From positions 1-6,446 of the forward strand of contig JAFGKQ010000319.1 of NCBI GenBank assembly GCA_016928495.1: a stretch of DNA of 6,446 bases, in the 5' to 3' direction. Position 1 is the stretch's first letter, and each line of letters opens with the position of its first letter. The DNA is from Candidatus Fermentibacterales bacterium. GTDB taxonomy: Bacteria > Fermentibacterota > Fermentibacteria > Fermentibacterales > JAFGKQ01. A program made the translations under genes and the position numbers. The notes under the pieces are model-generated. The model was not told the origin of the DNA. It saw only the letters and a list, made by a program, of their open reading frames with translations, and did not search any database. Positions 1-6,306 of the stretch are shown piece by piece.

Positions 1-818
1 AGCATCTCGCCATGGGTGTAGACGTCGATGCCCTTTCCCTCGGTCTGCTCCAGCAGGAGCTTAAGGTCCCTGAGGTCATGGCCTGACACGACTATGGCCC
101 TGCCCTTCACCGGCGTTACCCTGACGGGTGTCGGCACGGGGTGGCCGTAGGCCGAGGTATTGGCCCGGTCGAGCAGCTCCATCACGCGCAGGTTGTGCTC
201 TCCGACCCTCAGGGCCATTCCGAGCAGCTCCTCCACCGAGTGCTCACGCGTGAGGAACGCGAGAGCCTCGTGGAAGAAGGCGTAGGCCTCGTCGCTCTCC
301 ACGCCCAGGATCCCCGCATGATCGGCGTAGGCAGCCGCGCCCTTCAGCCCATAGGTGATCAGCTCCTCGAGCCCCGTGATGTCGGCCCCTCTGGCATCCA
401 GACGCTTCGCTATGCCGAGCTCCGCCGCAGTCGCCAGCATGCCCTCCATCTCGTCGGGGATCTCCTCGACGGCAGGTCCGGAGAACCTGTCCGGGGTTTC
501 TCCCGCCGCACGGCAGGCCTCTTCGTACATCTCCCGGATCCTGCCTCTCAGCTCCAGGCCCCTCCGGATCCTTGCAGCGATCGACTCGGCATCGAAGTTC
601 ACGTTGGTGACAGCGGAGAACAGCGCCTCCACTACGAACAGGTCCACTTCACGATCGGAGACACCGCGTCCCCGAGCTGCGTGCGCGTACTGGGCGATAC
701 CCCTGGAAAGGTAGATCAGCAGATCCTGCATCGCGGCCGTGTCGGGGTCCTTGCCGCACACTCCGAACCTGTCGCAGCCCTGGCCTTTCGCCGTCTGCTC
801 GCACTGGTAACAGAACAT
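1..818 (-). CDS. hcp: Hybrid cluster protein (hydroxylamine reductase), N-terminal half
   Basis: The frame is open from an ATG at 818 to the window edge, giving 272 codons of a protein that is usually about 540 residues, so roughly half is present. It begins MFCYQCEQT and has Cys3, Cys6, Cys15 and Cys21 (C-x2-C-x8-C-x5-C). This is the spacing of the Desulfovibrio-type Hcp that carries a [4Fe-4S] cluster, and it differs from the longer spacing in E. coli. Near the edge, SGHD (His about 247) and THGEM (Glu 271) are 24 residues apart, matching the His244/Glu268 hybrid-cluster ligands of the family; the later cysteine ligands lie outside the window. Hcp is a cytoplasmic enzyme of nitrosative-stress defence that reduces NO or hydroxylamine. 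A purine-rich ribosome site (GGGGAGGAAG) precedes the start. The gene follows the Rrf2 regulator by 22 bp on the same strand, so the two are probably cotranscribed. Identification is very secure. Confidence 0.96.
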   Translation of the reverse strand, partial: MFCYQCEQTAKGQGCDRFGVCGKDPDTAAMQDLLIYLSRGIAQYAHAARGRGVSDREVDLFVVEALFSAVTNVNFDAESIAARIRRGLELRGRIREMYEEACRAAGETPDRFSGPAVEEIPDEMEGMLATAAELGIAKRLDARGADITGLEELITYGLKGAAAYADHAGILGVESDEAYAFFHEALAFLTREHSVEELLGMALRVGEHNLRVMELLDRANTSAYGHPVPTPVRVTPVKGRAIVVSGHDLRDLKLLLEQTEGKGIDVYTHGEM

Positions 819-840: not shown

Positions 841-1263
841 CTATTTCCGAGCCTGCCGCCGCACGAACTCCGCCAGGCTCGTCTGGCCCAGCGAGTCCCT
901 GACCGCCTCCGCGACGCGCTCCGAGAGCTCTCCCAGCACGCACTGCCCCCTCCTGCAGATCGCTCTGCCGAGCAGGCACGCTCTCGCGCCGGCTCTCCCG
1001 TCAACGGCCTCCAGGAGCTCGAGCAGGCTGATCCCCTCTGCCGGGCGCGCCAGCCTGTAGCCACCCGAGGCACCCCGGACCGACTCCATCAGCCCCGTCC
1101 GGGCCAGTCCCTGAAGCACTTTGGCGAGGTGCGACCGCGACACTTCCAGAACCCGCGCCATCTGCTTCACCGAAAGGTATCCCGGCCCTTCGTTGGCGGC
1201 AGCAAGCGCTCCCGCGTGTATGGCGAGATTGGCCGCCTCACTCACTCTGAGCAGACCCTCCAA
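841..1263 (-). CDS. Rrf2-family transcriptional regulator, probably Fe-S cluster sensing
   Basis: This is a 140-aa protein, the usual length for the Rrf2/IscR/NsrR family. Residues about 29-50 (LSVKQMARVLEVSRSHLAKV) form the winged-helix recognition region, and RGASGGYRL at 63-71 is the family's wing signature. Cys96, Cys103 and Cys108 (C-x6-C-x4-C) lie where family members bind an iron-sulfur cluster, so a sensing role for NO, oxygen or Fe-S status is likely. The chosen start is TTG at 1263, preceded by GGGGGAG six bases upstream; the in-frame GTG at 1245 would remove six residues and is the alternative. The gene ends 22 bp before hcp. NsrR, an Rrf2 member, controls hcp in E. coli, so control of hcp is a reasonable inference here. 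The effector is not known from sequence. Confidence 0.93.
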   Translation of the reverse strand: MEGLLRVSEAANLAIHAGALAAANEGPGYLSVKQMARVLEVSRSHLAKVLQGLARTGLMESVRGASGGYRLARPAEGISLLELLEAVDGRAGARACLLGRAICRRGQCVLGELSERVAEAVRDSLGQTSLAEFVRRQARK

Positions 1264-1364: not shown

Positions 1365-1391
1365 GGGCCGGGGCCTCGGAGGCCCCGGCCC
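1365..1391 (-). terminator. GC-rich terminator hairpin after the selenoprotein gene
   Basis: Two 13-base arms (1365-1377 and 1379-1391) are perfect reverse complements around one base, giving a stem of about 12 bp with a three-base loop. The hairpin lies 25 bp beyond the stop codon of the minus-strand gene. It is followed on that strand by only TTTCCC, so it lacks a full U tract. It separates this gene from the rrf2 promoter. Confidence 0.7.
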
Positions 1392-1416: not shown

Positions 1417-2418
1417 TCAGTTCACCACGGTGAAGCGGGTTGTCACCGCCTCCCCGGCGGAGGTCTCCAATCTGGCGAAGTAGACTCCCTGCTGCTCGAT
1501 CTGAACCTGCGTCTGCCCGCCGGCCTCGAAGCTAGCGACGCAGCGGCCGGACAGGTCGAGTATCCGGATCTGACCGCTTCCCTGCTCCGGCAAGCTCGAG
1601 GCGACCGTCACGCAGCCCGAGCAGGGGTTGGGCCAGGCGCTGACAAGGAGAGAGGAGACCCCCGGCCCGCCCGGGTCCTCTACTCCTACCGCATCGGGAA
1701 GATCGATGAAGCTCGCGTTCAGGCACTCCTTGTTGCCCGTGCTGCACTGAACGTAGGTGATAACGTTGAGGTTCTCGAACGTGTGCTGCCCCGGATCGAG
1801 TATGTAATCGCCCTGCACGTTGACGGTCTCGGGGTAGGGCCCGGTGAAGGTGATGGGCGTGCCGGACGACCCGAGAGGCCATGCCCGCGGCTCCCACATG
1901 AGCTCCTGGCCGTTGTACACGCCGTAAGCGGACGTCGCGATGTCGTGGTCCTCCAGTATGGCCGACCAGACCTTTATCTCGCCGCTGACGCCCAGGTCCT
2001 GTTCCGCGGTTATGGCATAGTAGGCCGTACCACCCCATAGAGTGCCTGACACAACGACGACGATCGAGACGTGGCTGGGCACCGCCAGCCTGCTATCGAT
2101 GTAGTCCTTGATGGTGCTCGGAGACCATCCGATCTGCTGGTGGACGCCATCGACCTGGAATGTCGGGGTCCATCCCCAGCCGTAGAGGGAATGCCTGGCA
2201 GCAGTGTATGCGCTGGAACCCGGTCCGTTGTAGAAGATAATCTGCGGAGCTATGTCCCCATCATCGAGATAGCCGTTCACAAGAAGCTTCACAGCTGACC
2301 AGCTGCTTCCGCAGGAGCTTCAACCGGTCTGCGTGAACTCCTCGAACAGGACGACCCTCTCGGCCGCCATGGCAGGGACAACCATCGCGGCGGCCAAGAG
2401 AAGCAGGAGTCTCTTCAC
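1417..2418 (-). CDS. Exported Omp28-like thioredoxin-fold selenoprotein (UxxC) with C-terminal sorting domain
   Basis: Read through one in-frame UGA (2322-2320), the frame runs from GTG at 2418 to UGA at 1417 and gives 333 residues. GGTGATC, a good match to the anti-Shine-Dalgarno end, lies just before the start. Residues 1-18 form a signal peptide (VKRLLLLLAAAMVVPAMA). The mature protein begins with RVVLFEEFTQTG, then Sec33-Ser-Ser-Cys36. Omp28-related and other thioredoxin-fold proteins have EEFT-x-x-C-x-x-C here, so the UGA replaces the first redox cysteine. WTPTF at 83-87 supplies the cis-proline loop, and the central part resembles Omp28-related proteins of Bacteroidetes. Cys225 and Cys232 could form a second disulfide. 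Residues about 257-333 (SAWPNP to TVVN) form a FlgD-Ig/type IX-like sorting domain. A SECIS-like hairpin follows the UGA directly. The likely role is periplasmic or surface thiol-disulfide chemistry; the partner is unknown. The alternative is a nonsense mutation, or initiation at the GTG at 2292, which would remove both signal peptide and active site. No Sec machinery is visible in the window. Confidence 0.82.
2283..2322 (-). promoter_or_regulatory. Bacterial SECIS element for UGA-selenocysteine decoding
   Basis: On the minus strand the UGA occupies 2322-2320. An upper stem CAGCU (2305-2301) pairs with AGCUG (2296-2292) and closes a GGUC loop (2300-2297). A lower stem GAAGCU (2321-2316), starting inside the UGA, pairs perfectly with AGCUUC (2288-2283). 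The E. coli fdhF SECIS also has a small apical stem with a GGUC loop, whose G and U contact SelB. There the loop begins 19 bases after the UGA; here it begins 20 bases after. A second possible stem, CUGC-GGAA-GCAG, competes with part of this fold. Folding was done by eye. Confidence 0.75.
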
Positions 2419-2483
2419 TCGATCACCATCCGTTCCATCGCTCAGGGGCGAAGTGAGCATTCAACGACTAATCAACATTCGCT

Positions 2484-2636: not shown

Positions 2637-3251
2637 CTACCAGCCCAGGCTCTTGATGGCTCCCCAGGTGCTGGGGCTGATCGCAGTGTAGTTGTCGGGC
2701 GTGTAGATCGTGGCTCCCTCCGGGGCGGTGACCGTCAGGTCGTCTATCCAGACGATGTCCCCCTCCGTGGAGTAGGTTCTCGCCTCGACCACGAGGCCGG
2801 TGTGTCCATCGGCAACGGTCCAGGTGTACTCGGTCTGGTCCCAGCCCGTTCCCGGGCCATAGTCGGTGTTGCCATCGGCGCTGCCGTTGTAGCCGTACAC
2901 GTCCCCTGGATCGTCGTTCCAGTGGCCCCAGATCCTGCACGAAGGCGGAGTAGACCCAGGGGTCGTATCGTAGCGCCAGAAGCTCGCGCTCACCTCGTCA
3001 CCATCGCTGAGTCCGGTTATCCAGGCCACGTATGCCTGCGGCGTGCCGGTCGGCGAGTTGTCCTCGAGCTCGAGCGAGTGGCCCCCGGAGTGGACCGGGC
3101 TGGTGACTATCGTGACGATGATGGGAGGGTCGCCGGAGCCGTAGAGGCCGAGCACCGTCCCGGTCCCCTCCCAGCCATAGGTCTCGGTGCCCGCCAGGCA
3201 GATCCCGGCCAGGCAGAGGACAGCTCCAAGGGCGAAAGCGGTTCTCATCAT
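2637..3251 (-). CDS. Exported beta-rich protein of unknown function (204 aa)
   Basis: I do not recognise the family. The ATG at 3251 is preceded by GGAGG five bases upstream; a second ATG at 3248 is equally possible, and an open frame further upstream lacks such a site. Residues 1-20 (MMRTAFALGAVLCLAGICLA) form a signal peptide, probably cut before GTETYGW, with no proper lipobox. The mature part is rich in Gly, Thr, Trp and Tyr. It contains GGHSLELED, VSASFWRYD and VVEARTYSTEGDIVWIDDLT, the pattern of a jelly-roll carbohydrate-binding-like domain in which the last strand reads W-I-D-D. It has no sorting domain like its neighbour, and the chain ends at SLGW. It has its own promoter upstream and a hairpin downstream, so it is probably a single-gene unit. 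A surface or secreted binding role is inference only. Confidence 0.75.
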   Translation of the reverse strand: MMRTAFALGAVLCLAGICLAGTETYGWEGTGTVLGLYGSGDPPIIVTIVTSPVHSGGHSLELEDNSPTGTPQAYVAWITGLSDGDEVSASFWRYDTTPGSTPPSCRIWGHWNDDPGDVYGYNGSADGNTDYGPGTGWDQTEYTWTVADGHTGLVVEARTYSTEGDIVWIDDLTVTAPEGATIYTPDNYTAISPSTWGAIKSLGW

Positions 3252-4471: not shown

Positions 4472-4903
4472 GTGGCGATTCTGGACTTCATCAAGGACGC
4501 CGGTGAAAAACTGGCGGAAATCGGGCAGGACGCGGTCCTGGCACAAAAGATCGAGGAACGGATCATCAAGCATGGCGTGAAAGTCAAGGACCTCCAGGTC
4601 GTAGTGAAGGAGGACCAGGTCTTCCTCAAGGGAACTCCCGGGACGATCGAGGACAGGGAGAAGGCTCTCCTCCTCGCCGGCAATGTTCGGGGCATCGCCA
4701 AGGTCACGGACGCTCTTGTTGTGAAGGGCGATCTCGGCAGGACTCGATACCATGTCGTCGCCAAGGGGGATACGCTGTCCGGTATCTCCAAGAAAATGTA
4801 CGGTGACGCGAACAAGTACATGAAGATATTCGAAGCCAACAAGCCGATGCTCGATCACCCCGACAAGATCTACCCGGGACAGGTGCTCAGGGTCCCCGAG
4901 TAG
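4472..4903 (+). CDS. kbp: BON-LysM protein of the Kbp/YgaU family
   Basis: This 143-aa protein matches E. coli Kbp (149 aa) along its whole length. It begins with an amphipathic segment (AILDFIKDAGEKL) and continues with a BON domain at about residues 24-85. It ends with a LysM domain at about 93-141, with YHVVAKGDTLSGISKKMYG, KIFEANKPML and DKIYPGQVLRVPE clearly conserved. E. coli Kbp is a soluble potassium-binding protein. No signal peptide is seen here, which agrees with a cytoplasmic location. The GTG at 4472 is chosen because AAGGAAGGTGGAT lies just upstream and the family starts at this point. An upstream in-frame ATG at 4301 would add 57 residues without similarity. The gene stands alone, with weak TATAGT at 4421 as a possible -10 box and a loose hairpin with ACGGGC/GCCCGT arms at 4914-4944 after the stop. 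Confidence 0.93.
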   Translation: MAILDFIKDAGEKLAEIGQDAVLAQKIEERIIKHGVKVKDLQVVVKEDQVFLKGTPGTIEDREKALLLAGNVRGIAKVTDALVVKGDLGRTRYHVVAKGDTLSGISKKMYGDANKYMKIFEANKPMLDHPDKIYPGQVLRVPE

Positions 4904-5260: not shown

Positions 5261-5328
5261 GCCGGCAGAGAGGCAACCCCGGGGTCTCGTCCCGTCCACG
5301 AACCAGAGAGGGAGCACCAGAAAGAAAC

Positions 5329-5415
5329 GGGGACACGCACCCGGGTCAGCGCATGTTCCCTCCTCGTCGGTGGCAGCCCCGACATGGGTCTTTCTAACCT
5401 CATCTGGAGATGGCT
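5329..5415 (+). repeat. Hairpin repeat copy 0, left of the toxin-antitoxin module
   Basis: The copy opens with a REP-like hairpin (5329-5360), whose outer arms GGGGACACGC and GCATGTTCCC pair with one mismatch and one G-T pair. It continues with GGTGGCAGCCCCG and a 32-base tail (5384-5415). The tail matches the tail of copy 3 at 25 of 32 positions by manual alignment. It ends 23 bp before the -35 box of the antitoxin promoter. Confidence 0.75.
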
Positions 5416-5438
5416 ACCAGCTTCTCTGGTGCCGATCC

Positions 5439-5468
5439 TTGACTTAACGTACGCTATTCCGTACGTTA
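5439..5468 (+). promoter_or_regulatory. Promoter and palindromic operator of the yefM-yoeB module
   Basis: A -35 box TTGACT (5439-5444) lies 17 bp before TACGTT (5462-5467). A perfect inverted repeat, TAACGTACG (5445-5453) and CGTACGTTA (5460-5468), fills the spacer and covers the -10 box. Its two GTAC cores are 12 bp apart, centre to centre. YefM-YoeB of E. coli represses its promoter through TGTACA cores with similar spacing, so autorepression by the antitoxin and its complex is expected here. Confidence 0.75.
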
Positions 5469-5488
5469 CTGTCAGAAAGGGGTCCCTG

Positions 5489-5731
5489 ATGCCATCGATA
5501 TCAGCAACCAATGCCCGAGCTCGCCTCTATGCGCTGATCGATGAGGCGGCGAAGTCGCATGAGCCAATCATCATCACCGGGAAGCGCAACAAGGCGGTTC
5601 TTCTCTCCGAGGATGACTGGAGGGCGATTCAGGAGACGATGTTCCTCCTATCGATTCCTGGAATGAGGGAGTCGATTCGTCAGGGCCTTGCTACACCGAT
5701 CGAGGAGTGCACAGAGGAAATCGACTGGTGA
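5489..5731 (+). CDS. yefM: YefM/Phd-family antitoxin
   Basis: This 80-aa protein has the family layout. An N-terminal DNA-binding part reads MPSISATNARARLYALIDEA, then HEPIIITGKRNKAVLLSEDDW (residues about 24-44), which is typical of YefM. The C-terminus is acidic (EECTEEIDW) and normally wraps around the toxin. The ATG at 5489 follows GAAAGGGG at a normal distance; an open frame further upstream runs through the operator and repeat and is not a real extension. The antitoxin neutralises YoeB and, with it, represses the promoter. Its stop overlaps the toxin start by four bases, so translation is coupled. Confidence 0.94.
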   Translation: MPSISATNARARLYALIDEAAKSHEPIIITGKRNKAVLLSEDDWRAIQETMFLLSIPGMRESIRQGLATPIEECTEEIDW

Positions 5732-5991
5732 CCTGGCGCCTGGTCTACGCAAGACAGGCCGCGAAGGATGCGCGGAAGCTGGCTGCGGCCGGCCTGAAGC
5801 CCAAGGCAGAGGTGCTCCTGGCGATACTCAGGCGGAATCCCTTCGAATCACCTCCACCCTTCGAGAAGCTGCCAGGCGACCTGGCGGGTGCCTACTCGCG
5901 CAGGATCAACATACAGCACCGCATCGTCTATCAGGTCCTCGAAGACGAGAAGGCCGTCAAGATAGTCCGGATGTGGACCCACTACGAGTAG
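5728..5991 (+). CDS. yoeB: YoeB/Txe-family mRNA interferase toxin
   Basis: This 87-aa protein is close to E. coli YoeB (84 aa). It keeps PFEKLPGDLAGAYSRRI and the following QHRIVYQV. Glu46 and Arg65 fall at the positions of the YoeB catalytic residues, and the end reads THYE, giving the His-Tyr pair (85-86) that YoeB uses for cleavage. YoeB binds the ribosome and cuts mRNA in the A site. The start is GTG at 5728 inside the antitoxin stop (GTGA overlap); a GTG at 5707 would add seven residues without similarity. All key residues are present, so the toxin is probably active. A terminator may be supplied by the repeat hairpin at 6006-6037. Confidence 0.95.
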   Translation: MTWRLVYARQAAKDARKLAAAGLKPKAEVLLAILRRNPFESPPPFEKLPGDLAGAYSRRINIQHRIVYQVLEDEKAVKIVRMWTHYE

Positions 5992-6005
5992 GGGACAAGA
6001 GGAGA

Positions 6006-6129
6006 GGGGACGTGCCTGATAGAGCTCGAACGTCCCCGTCTCAACCATGGTAGCGGGGACATGACACGAGGTCCCAGTGCAGCTCCGCCTGGGCCCCGCG
6101 GCACGGGATACGTGTTCCCTGCCCAAAGA
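6006..6129 (+). repeat. Hairpin repeat copy 1
   Basis: GGGGACGT (6006-6013) and ACGTCCCC (6030-6037) form a perfect 8-bp stem 14 bp after the toxin stop. The shared linker GGTAGCGGGG follows (6049-6058). A second hairpin, GGCA-c-GGGA (6100-6108) with TCCC-TGCC (6116-6123), matches the second hairpin of copy 2. This copy is longer than the others, with about 40 extra bases between linker and second hairpin. Confidence 0.7.
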
Positions 6130-6140
6130 GGAAGGAGAAA

Positions 6141-6213
6141 GGGGACACGTAACGGGTACATGTCCCCTTGTTCTGTTGATAGCGGGGGCAGGATACCCAG
6201 TCCCTGCCCAGAC
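6141..6213 (+). repeat. Hairpin repeat copy 2
   Basis: The first hairpin (6141-6167) has an 11-bp stem: GGGGACACGTA pairs with TACATGTCCCC through one G-T pair and a five-base loop. The linker GATAGCGGGG follows. The second hairpin has arms GGGCAGG (6186-6192) and CCTGCCC (6203-6209). The preceding AGGAGAAA is shared with copy 3. Confidence 0.75.
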
Positions 6214-6225
6214 AAGCAGGAGAAA

Positions 6226-6306
6226 GGAGACACGCACCCTGATCGGTGCATGTCCCCAAGTGGTAGCCCCGGGTATGAGTTCTTCGAACCCCTTCTGGAG
6301 GTGGCT
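6226..6306 (+). repeat. Hairpin repeat copy 3, right end of the cluster
   Basis: The hairpin at 6226-6257 pairs GGAGACACGCACC with GGTGCATGTCCCC through 13 pairs including two G-T pairs, with a six-base loop. The linker GGTAGCCCCG and a 32-base tail (6275-6306) follow. Both linker and tail match copy 0 on the other side of the toxin-antitoxin module. It may also end transcription of the minus-strand gene at 6342. Confidence 0.75.

What the first reader, a model, noticed from the sequence alone, without database searches (positions are those of the whole stretch)
1417..2418. Candidate new selenoprotein: exported Omp28-like thioredoxin-fold protein with a UxxC active site
A single in-frame UGA separates a signal peptide plus EEFTQTG from the rest of a thioredoxin-like domain, and the next residues are S-S-C. 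The UGA therefore sits at the first cysteine of a CxxC redox motif, the commonest place for selenocysteine. The reading frame is intact on both sides and ends in a normal sorting domain and terminator, which a decayed gene would not be expected to show. Ordinary gene calling would start at the GTG at 2292 and lose the signal peptide and active site. I do not know of this family as an established selenoprotein family, and that should be searched.
Basis: partly seen in the sequence, partly recalled or inferred. Interest (0 to 1): 0.92.

Follow-up and report, generated by a model that had tools for sequence, protein, structure and literature searches.

The report
Surface thioredoxin-like selenoprotein, UxxC type
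This bacterial gene almost certainly uses an internal UGA "stop" codon to insert the rare amino acid selenocysteine into the active site of an exported thioredoxin-like protein; it is a divergent, lineage-expanded relative of an Omp28-related selenoprotein already in the catalogues, rather than a wholly new kind.

Summary
Confirmed. On the - strand, 2418..1417, one in-frame UGA (2322..2320) splits a signal-peptide/thioredoxin-like/T9SS-tail protein at the first position of a UxxC motif. In homologs, nearly all from Candidatus Fermentibacterota, this column is UGA in 55, a Cys codon in 22, anything else in none. A SECIS-type hairpin with a GGUC loop lies 19 nt downstream. Its 5-bp core is intact in 43/54 UGA genes and 0/22 Cys genes, against 2.6/54 after synonymous recoding, and it covaries. 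The same draft genome carries tRNA-Sec (UCA), selB, a contig-cut selA and two selD, each with its own in-frame UGA. Fold: closest solved structure is the T9SS-exported thioredoxin HBP35 of Porphyromonas gingivalis, Z 23.5. The novelty claim needs trimming: an "Omp28-related selenoprotein" with UxxC is already known (NCBIfam NF045500 = GOS_C; PMC2398784, PMC13188914). The window protein is far below that model's cut-off (12.8 vs 200 bits), as are its relatives, so it is a new, tandemly expanded subfamily. Function as a surface thiol-disulfide oxidoreductase is inferred; Sec incorporation has not been shown experimentally.

The parts
1417..2418 (-). Selenoprotein CDS, 333 aa with one Sec; GTG start 2418-2416, terminal TGA 1419-1417
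   Evidence: homologs intact over the whole length
2320..2322 (-). In-frame UGA, codon 33, predicted selenocysteine
   Evidence: UGA or Cys only in 77 aligned homologs
2311..2322 (-). U-S-S-C redox motif (UxxC)
   Evidence: second Cys (C36) invariant in alignment A2
2290..2307 (-). Bacterial SECIS-type hairpin, +16..+33 from the U of UGA; GGUC loop at 2300-2297
   Evidence: matches the bSECIS rules quoted in PMC13188914
2365..2418 (-). Signal peptide, MKRLLLLLAAAMVVPAMA, AxA-type cleavage site
   Evidence: sequence directly; the cleavage site is an inference
2083..2361 (-). Thioredoxin-like domain (about residues 20-112)
   Evidence: AlphaFold2 model, pLDDT about 97 here; residues 18-244 on HBP35 5y1a, Z 23.5
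1699..2070 (-). Beta-sandwich middle domain (about residues 117-240), as in HBP35 and Omp28
   Evidence: 2r2c Omp28 domain, Z 9.5
1426..1635 (-). Type IX secretion C-terminal sorting domain (residues 262-331)
   Evidence: PF18962 and TIGR04183 above cut-off; gingipain and PorZ C-terminal domains
2421..2427 (-). Shine-Dalgarno-like GGTGATC before the GTG start
   Evidence: sequence directly
1365..1391 (-). 13-bp perfect inverted repeat after the gene, terminator-like without a T-run
   Evidence: not called by the consensus scan

Best explanation
The gene encodes a selenoprotein. SelB and tRNA-Sec(UCA), guided by the GGUC-loop hairpin just after the UGA, insert selenocysteine at codon 33 (strongly supported by computation, not shown experimentally). 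The protein is exported by its signal peptide and then, by its C-terminal sorting domain, probably carried across the outer membrane by a type IX secretion system (inferred from the domain and from SprA in the genome). Its thioredoxin-like domain uses a Sec-Ser-Ser-Cys site as a thiol-disulfide oxidoreductase at the cell surface, the Sec being the attacking residue (inferred from fold and motif, by analogy with HBP35). It works like a Sec version of HBP35 and belongs to the wider Omp28-related group.
For: UGA/Cys exchange at the column: 55 UGA, 22 TGC/TGT, no other codon, with a Cys three residues on in every aligned case. Homologs 45-61% identical keep one TGA and an open frame on both sides. 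SECIS: perfect 5-bp core in 43/54 UGA genes vs 0/22 Cys genes; 1000 synonymous recodings gave a mean of 2.6 and a maximum of 10. Covariation: 91.4% of cells paired vs 80.5% shuffled and at most 64% when slid; 37 double-changed cells vs 10.5; RNAalifold finds the same helix unaided. Machinery in the same genome: tRNA-Sec 74 bits, cut-off 47, confirmed by ARAGORN with a tca anticodon; selB 305.9 bits, cut-off 242; selA fragment at the end of the selB contig; two selD, each with one in-frame TGA. Fold: pLDDT 89.5, HBP35 Z 23.5 over 221 residues. HBP35 reduces insulin and needs C48 and C51 (PMC2907840). SprA_N over cut-off in 14 of 15 genomes searched, the own genome among them. Tree: UGA genes group together with one nested Cys gene.
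Against: No proteomic, 75Se or genetic evidence. In the window gene alone the hairpin is not significant: about 9% of synonymous recodings pair as well, and the minimum-energy fold of 48 nt prefers another hairpin; the case rests on the set of homologs. The isolated 18-nt hairpin is -6.9 kcal/mol and reaches -10.1 only with flanks; the published guide value is -7.5 (PMC13188914). selA is only partly recovered (81% complete draft). Oxidoreductase activity and surface location are inferred.
Confidence: 0.93

Rival explanations
1. The UGA is a nonsense mutation or sequencing error in a decaying or intact Cys gene.
For: A single draft contig at 81% completeness could carry an error.
Against: 55 homologs in many independent assemblies, 25-64% identical, have UGA at the same codon. 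Substitutions favour third positions downstream of the UGA, e.g. 99/71/136 differences over 301 codons vs L019, so the part after the UGA is under protein-level selection.
Confidence: 0.01
2. The organism has a reassigned code in which UGA always means an amino acid (as in codes 4 or 25).
For: UGA is clearly read through in this gene.
Against: The same gene ends at a TGA aligned with the family's C-terminus; the Hcp fragment and the Rrf2 gene are open without internal TGA; the UGA aligns with catalytic Cys only; selD carries its usual single Sec UGA; tRNA-Sec and selB are present.
Confidence: 0.01
3. Translation normally stops at the UGA and restarts at the GTG at 2292, giving a truncated protein without signal peptide or active site, perhaps as selenium-dependent regulation.
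For: A GTG lies at 2292 and an ordinary gene caller would choose it; some termination at Sec codons is usual (general knowledge).
Against: The GTG lies inside the 3' arm of the conserved hairpin; a product without signal peptide but with a secretion tail makes little sense; an N-terminal hydrophobic leader and the active-site motif are kept across the aligned homologs.
Confidence: 0.03
4. UGA is read through by a near-cognate tRNA (Cys or Trp) rather than by tRNA-Sec.
For: The aligned residue in paralogs is Cys, so Cys insertion would also work.
Against: A dedicated Sec system is present and a SECIS-type hairpin is found in UGA genes but not in Cys paralogs.
Confidence: 0.02

Closest known systems
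Omp28-related selenoprotein NF045500 (hypothetical protein GOS_C; Zhang and Gladyshev 2008, PMC2398784; Table 1 of PMC13188914)
   Same: Predicted selenoprotein with thioredoxin-like fold and UxxC; weak profile similarity over the N-terminal domain, with the window's Sec falling at profile position 51 by ungapped arithmetic, as do the UGAs of the more distant L112, L091 and L090.
   Different: Window protein scores 12.8 bits against a cut-off of 200; none of 99 genomes searched, the own genome and its order included, reaches the cut-off. This subfamily is short (about 333 aa), carries a T9SS tail and is multi-copy in Fermentibacterota.
HBP35, 35-kDa hemin-binding protein of Porphyromonas gingivalis (PDB 5y1a; PMC2907840, PMC3120885)
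   Same: Thioredoxin-like domain, beta-sandwich domain and T9SS C-terminal domain in the same order; best structural match, Z 23.5, 221 residues, 2.7 A; two-residue redox motif near the N-terminus.
   Different: HBP35 uses two Cys (C48, C51), not Sec; 16% identity over the aligned part; hemin binding not tested here.
Omp28 outer membrane protein (PF11551, NF033782; PDB 2r2c)
   Same: 26 of 46 family members match PF11551 and 28 match NF033782 at E up to 0.1; 2r2c domain Z 9.5.
   Different: The window protein itself does not match PF11551 at E up to 1 and is far below NF033782's cut-off (15.3 vs 150); Omp28 is described as a lipoprotein, this has a T9SS tail.

Membership tests
Bacterial selenoproteins | In-frame UGA aligned with Cys (or UGA) in homologs | tested here: met
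   55 UGA, 22 Cys, 0 other
Bacterial selenoproteins | SECIS hairpin after the UGA: loop 16-37 nt away, G in the first two loop positions, stem of at least 4 bp | tested here: met
   Spacing 19 nt, loop GGUC, 6-bp stem in the window gene; 43/54 vs 0/22 for the 5-bp core; rules from PMC13188914
Bacterial selenoproteins | Sec machinery in the same genome (tRNA-Sec, SelA, SelB, SelD) | tested here: met
   tRNA-Sec, selB and selD over cut-off; selA only as a fragment cut by a contig end, 92 of 268 bits
Bacterial selenoproteins | Se actually incorporated | not testable with these tools
   needs mass spectrometry or 75Se
NF045500 Omp28-related selenoprotein (GOS_C) | Score over the curated cut-off of 200 bits | tested here: not met
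   12.8 bits; 0 of 99 genomes over the cut-off
NF045500 Omp28-related selenoprotein (GOS_C) | UxxC at the N-terminal thioredoxin-like domain | tested here: met
   motif listed in PMC13188914
T9SS cargo proteins | Type A C-terminal sorting domain over the cut-off | tested here: met
   TIGR04183 29.4 > 23; PF18962 30.8 > 27; TIGR04183 matches 46 of 46 members at E up to 0.1
T9SS cargo proteins | T9SS machinery in the genome | tested here: met
   SprA_N PF14349 over cut-off in the own genome (contig C152) and in 14 of 15 genomes overall; other components not searched
HBP35-like surface thioredoxin | Same domain order and fold | tested here: met
   5y1a Z 23.5 over residues 18-244
HBP35-like surface thioredoxin | Disulfide-reducing activity dependent on both motif residues | not testable with these tools
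   needs purified protein

The most novel reading that the evidence does not exclude
Fermentibacterota have a lineage-wide, tandemly amplified set of cell-surface selenoproteins of the HBP35/Omp28 type, delivered by type IX secretion, forming a selenium-dependent extracellular redox system with Cys paralogs for other tasks.
Probability: 0.5. Interest if true: 0.65.

Novelty: new variant of a known kind. Interest (0 to 1): 0.52.

Why it matters
It adds a well-supported subfamily to the known selenoproteins, in an uncultured phylum for which no selenoprotein report was found in the paper library. It shows Sec in proteins marked for type IX secretion, repeated in tandem arrays. Such genes are likely to be mis-called in ordinary annotation: in the window the caller's start lies inside the SECIS hairpin and the signal peptide and active site are dropped, so the protein looks like a cytoplasmic fragment. 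The Cys paralogs and one Sec-to-Cys switch give a natural comparison of Sec and Cys in one fold.

Tried and rejected
Rfam scan of the window: no match at gathering scores. Conserved gene neighbours as a clue to function: none common to all; eight loci share one neighbouring protein family and five share a NifS/NifU-like pair (recognised by eye), which looks like synteny of close relatives, while the window has Rrf2 and Hcp instead. Omp28 Pfam match for the window protein itself: not found at E up to 1, only in other members. Paper searches for Omp28 + selenoprotein, Fermentibacteria + selenocysteine, and Hyd24-12 + selenoprotein gave nothing; the known family was found through the NCBIfam scan and its accession in a review table. 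Several neighbour scans failed because of wrong frames.

Full report
Observation. The window lies in a 2.3-Mb, 337-contig draft genome, 81% complete. The - strand frame 2418..1417 is open except for one TGA at codon 33, 2322..2320. Table 11 gives 1417..2292 from a GTG. The read-through protein has a signal peptide (MKRLLLLLAAAMVVPAMA), then AERVVLFEEFTQTG-U-SSC, and ends in a Por secretion tail over both curated cut-offs. The inverted repeat after the gene is perfect over 13 bp but lacks a T-run.

Homologs. A read-through protein search over 146 genomes found long matches almost only in the window's own order, many flagged with exactly one internal TGA. Named records found with the family alignment are Candidatus Fermentibacterota (candidate division Hyd24-12; Sabulitectum, Aegiribacteria, Fermentibacteraceae). 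At the column of the window's UGA, 55 distinct homologs have TGA and 22 have TGC or TGT; no other codon occurs, and the Cys at +3 is always there. A tree of 65 proteins needs only two changes between UGA and Cys: the Fermentibacterota UGA genes form one group, with one Cys gene (L060) nested inside as an apparent Sec-to-Cys switch, and the other Cys paralogs form a separate group; the two distant rows from other lineages sit on long branches of unsure place. The own genome has one UGA gene and two Cys paralogs. Several relatives have two or three UGA copies in tandem, e.g. G008:C31, G006:C41, G011:C12. Codon-position differences between the window gene and its nearest relatives are lowest at position 2 and highest at position 3 after the UGA, as expected for a translated region.

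SECIS. Aligned without gaps, the UGA genes share a hairpin at +16..+33 with a GGUC-type loop 19 nt after the UGA. The helix has compensatory changes at four pairs, 37 double-changed cells against 10.5 in shuffles, and no slid register comes near it. A 5-bp core is perfect in 43 of 54 UGA genes and in none of 22 Cys genes; synonymous recoding of the same proteins gives 2.6 on average and 10 at most. The geometry fits the published bacterial consensus (PMC13188914). For the window gene alone the hairpin would not be convincing: 9% of recodings pair as well and the minimum-energy fold of 48 nt chooses another hairpin.

Machinery. tRNA-Sec is at G000:C136 (74 bits, cut-off 47; anticodon tca). selB is at G000:C111 (305.9 bits, cut-off 242), next to a selA piece cut by the contig end. 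Two selD genes lie side by side at G000:C329, each with a single in-frame TGA. The gene's own stop is also TGA, so UGA is not simply reassigned.

Fold and function. AlphaFold2 with 46 rows gives pLDDT 89.5. The best solved match is HBP35 of Porphyromonas gingivalis, Z 23.5 over 221 residues at 2.7 A; the next is 2axo at Z 17.4 (an Agrobacterium protein of unknown function), the Omp28 domain 2r2c follows at Z 9.5, and the C-terminal 80 residues match several immunoglobulin-like domains including T9SS tails. HBP35 is a T9SS cargo (PMC3120885, abstract) with thioredoxin activity that needs C48 and C51 (PMC2907840). SprA, a T9SS core part, is in this genome. The most likely function is therefore a surface or secreted thiol-disulfide oxidoreductase with Sec as the attacking residue. 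The Sec step is strongly supported by computation; export route and activity are inferred.

Known or new. NCBIfam holds NF045500, Omp28-related selenoprotein. The 2026 catalogue equates it with hypothetical protein GOS_C, UxxC (PMC13188914), described in 2008 with 74 Sec sequences, a thioredoxin-like fold and no known function (PMC2398784). The window protein scores 12.8 bits against the cut-off of 200, and no genome among the 99 searched reaches it, so it is not a member by that test; but the Sec of the window protein and of three distant homologs (L112, L091, L090) falls at the same profile position, 51, by ungapped arithmetic from the reported ranges. It is best called a new subfamily within a known group: new variant of a known kind. 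No paper in the library reports selenoproteins in this phylum under the terms tried; that is weak evidence, since the library is partial.

Noticed in passing
G000:C329:357-1283 and 1732-2646 (L104): Two selD genes side by side in the window's own genome, each with one in-frame TGA; an unusual duplication of selenophosphate synthetase.
   Followed up: no
L060:207-1190 (-), G019:C28: Cys homolog nested inside the UGA group of the tree, without the SECIS core: an apparent Sec-to-Cys switch.
   Followed up: partly
L019 and L051 (G006:C41), L021/L048/L049 (G008:C31), L054/L055 (G011:C12): Tandem arrays of two or three UGA-containing copies of the family.
   Followed up: partly
window 3-818 and 844-1263 (-): Hybrid-cluster protein / hydroxylamine reductase (Prismane, runs off the window) preceded by an Rrf2-family regulator.
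   Followed up: partly
window 2637-3251 (-): Exported 204-aa protein with no Pfam or NCBIfam match, just upstream of the selenoprotein gene on the same strand.
   Followed up: partly
window 5489-5991 (+): Phd/YefM-type antitoxin and YoeB-type toxin pair.
   Followed up: partly
window 4472-4903 (+): BON-LysM protein.
   Followed up: partly
window 5300-6260: Several degenerate copies of a ggggacacg...catgtcccc-like motif around the toxin-antitoxin pair, seen by eye.
   Followed up: no
L112:193-2190 (-): 665-aa homolog from another lineage with UxxC, a T9SS tail and 69 bits to NF045500: intermediate between this subfamily and GOS_C.
   Followed up: partly
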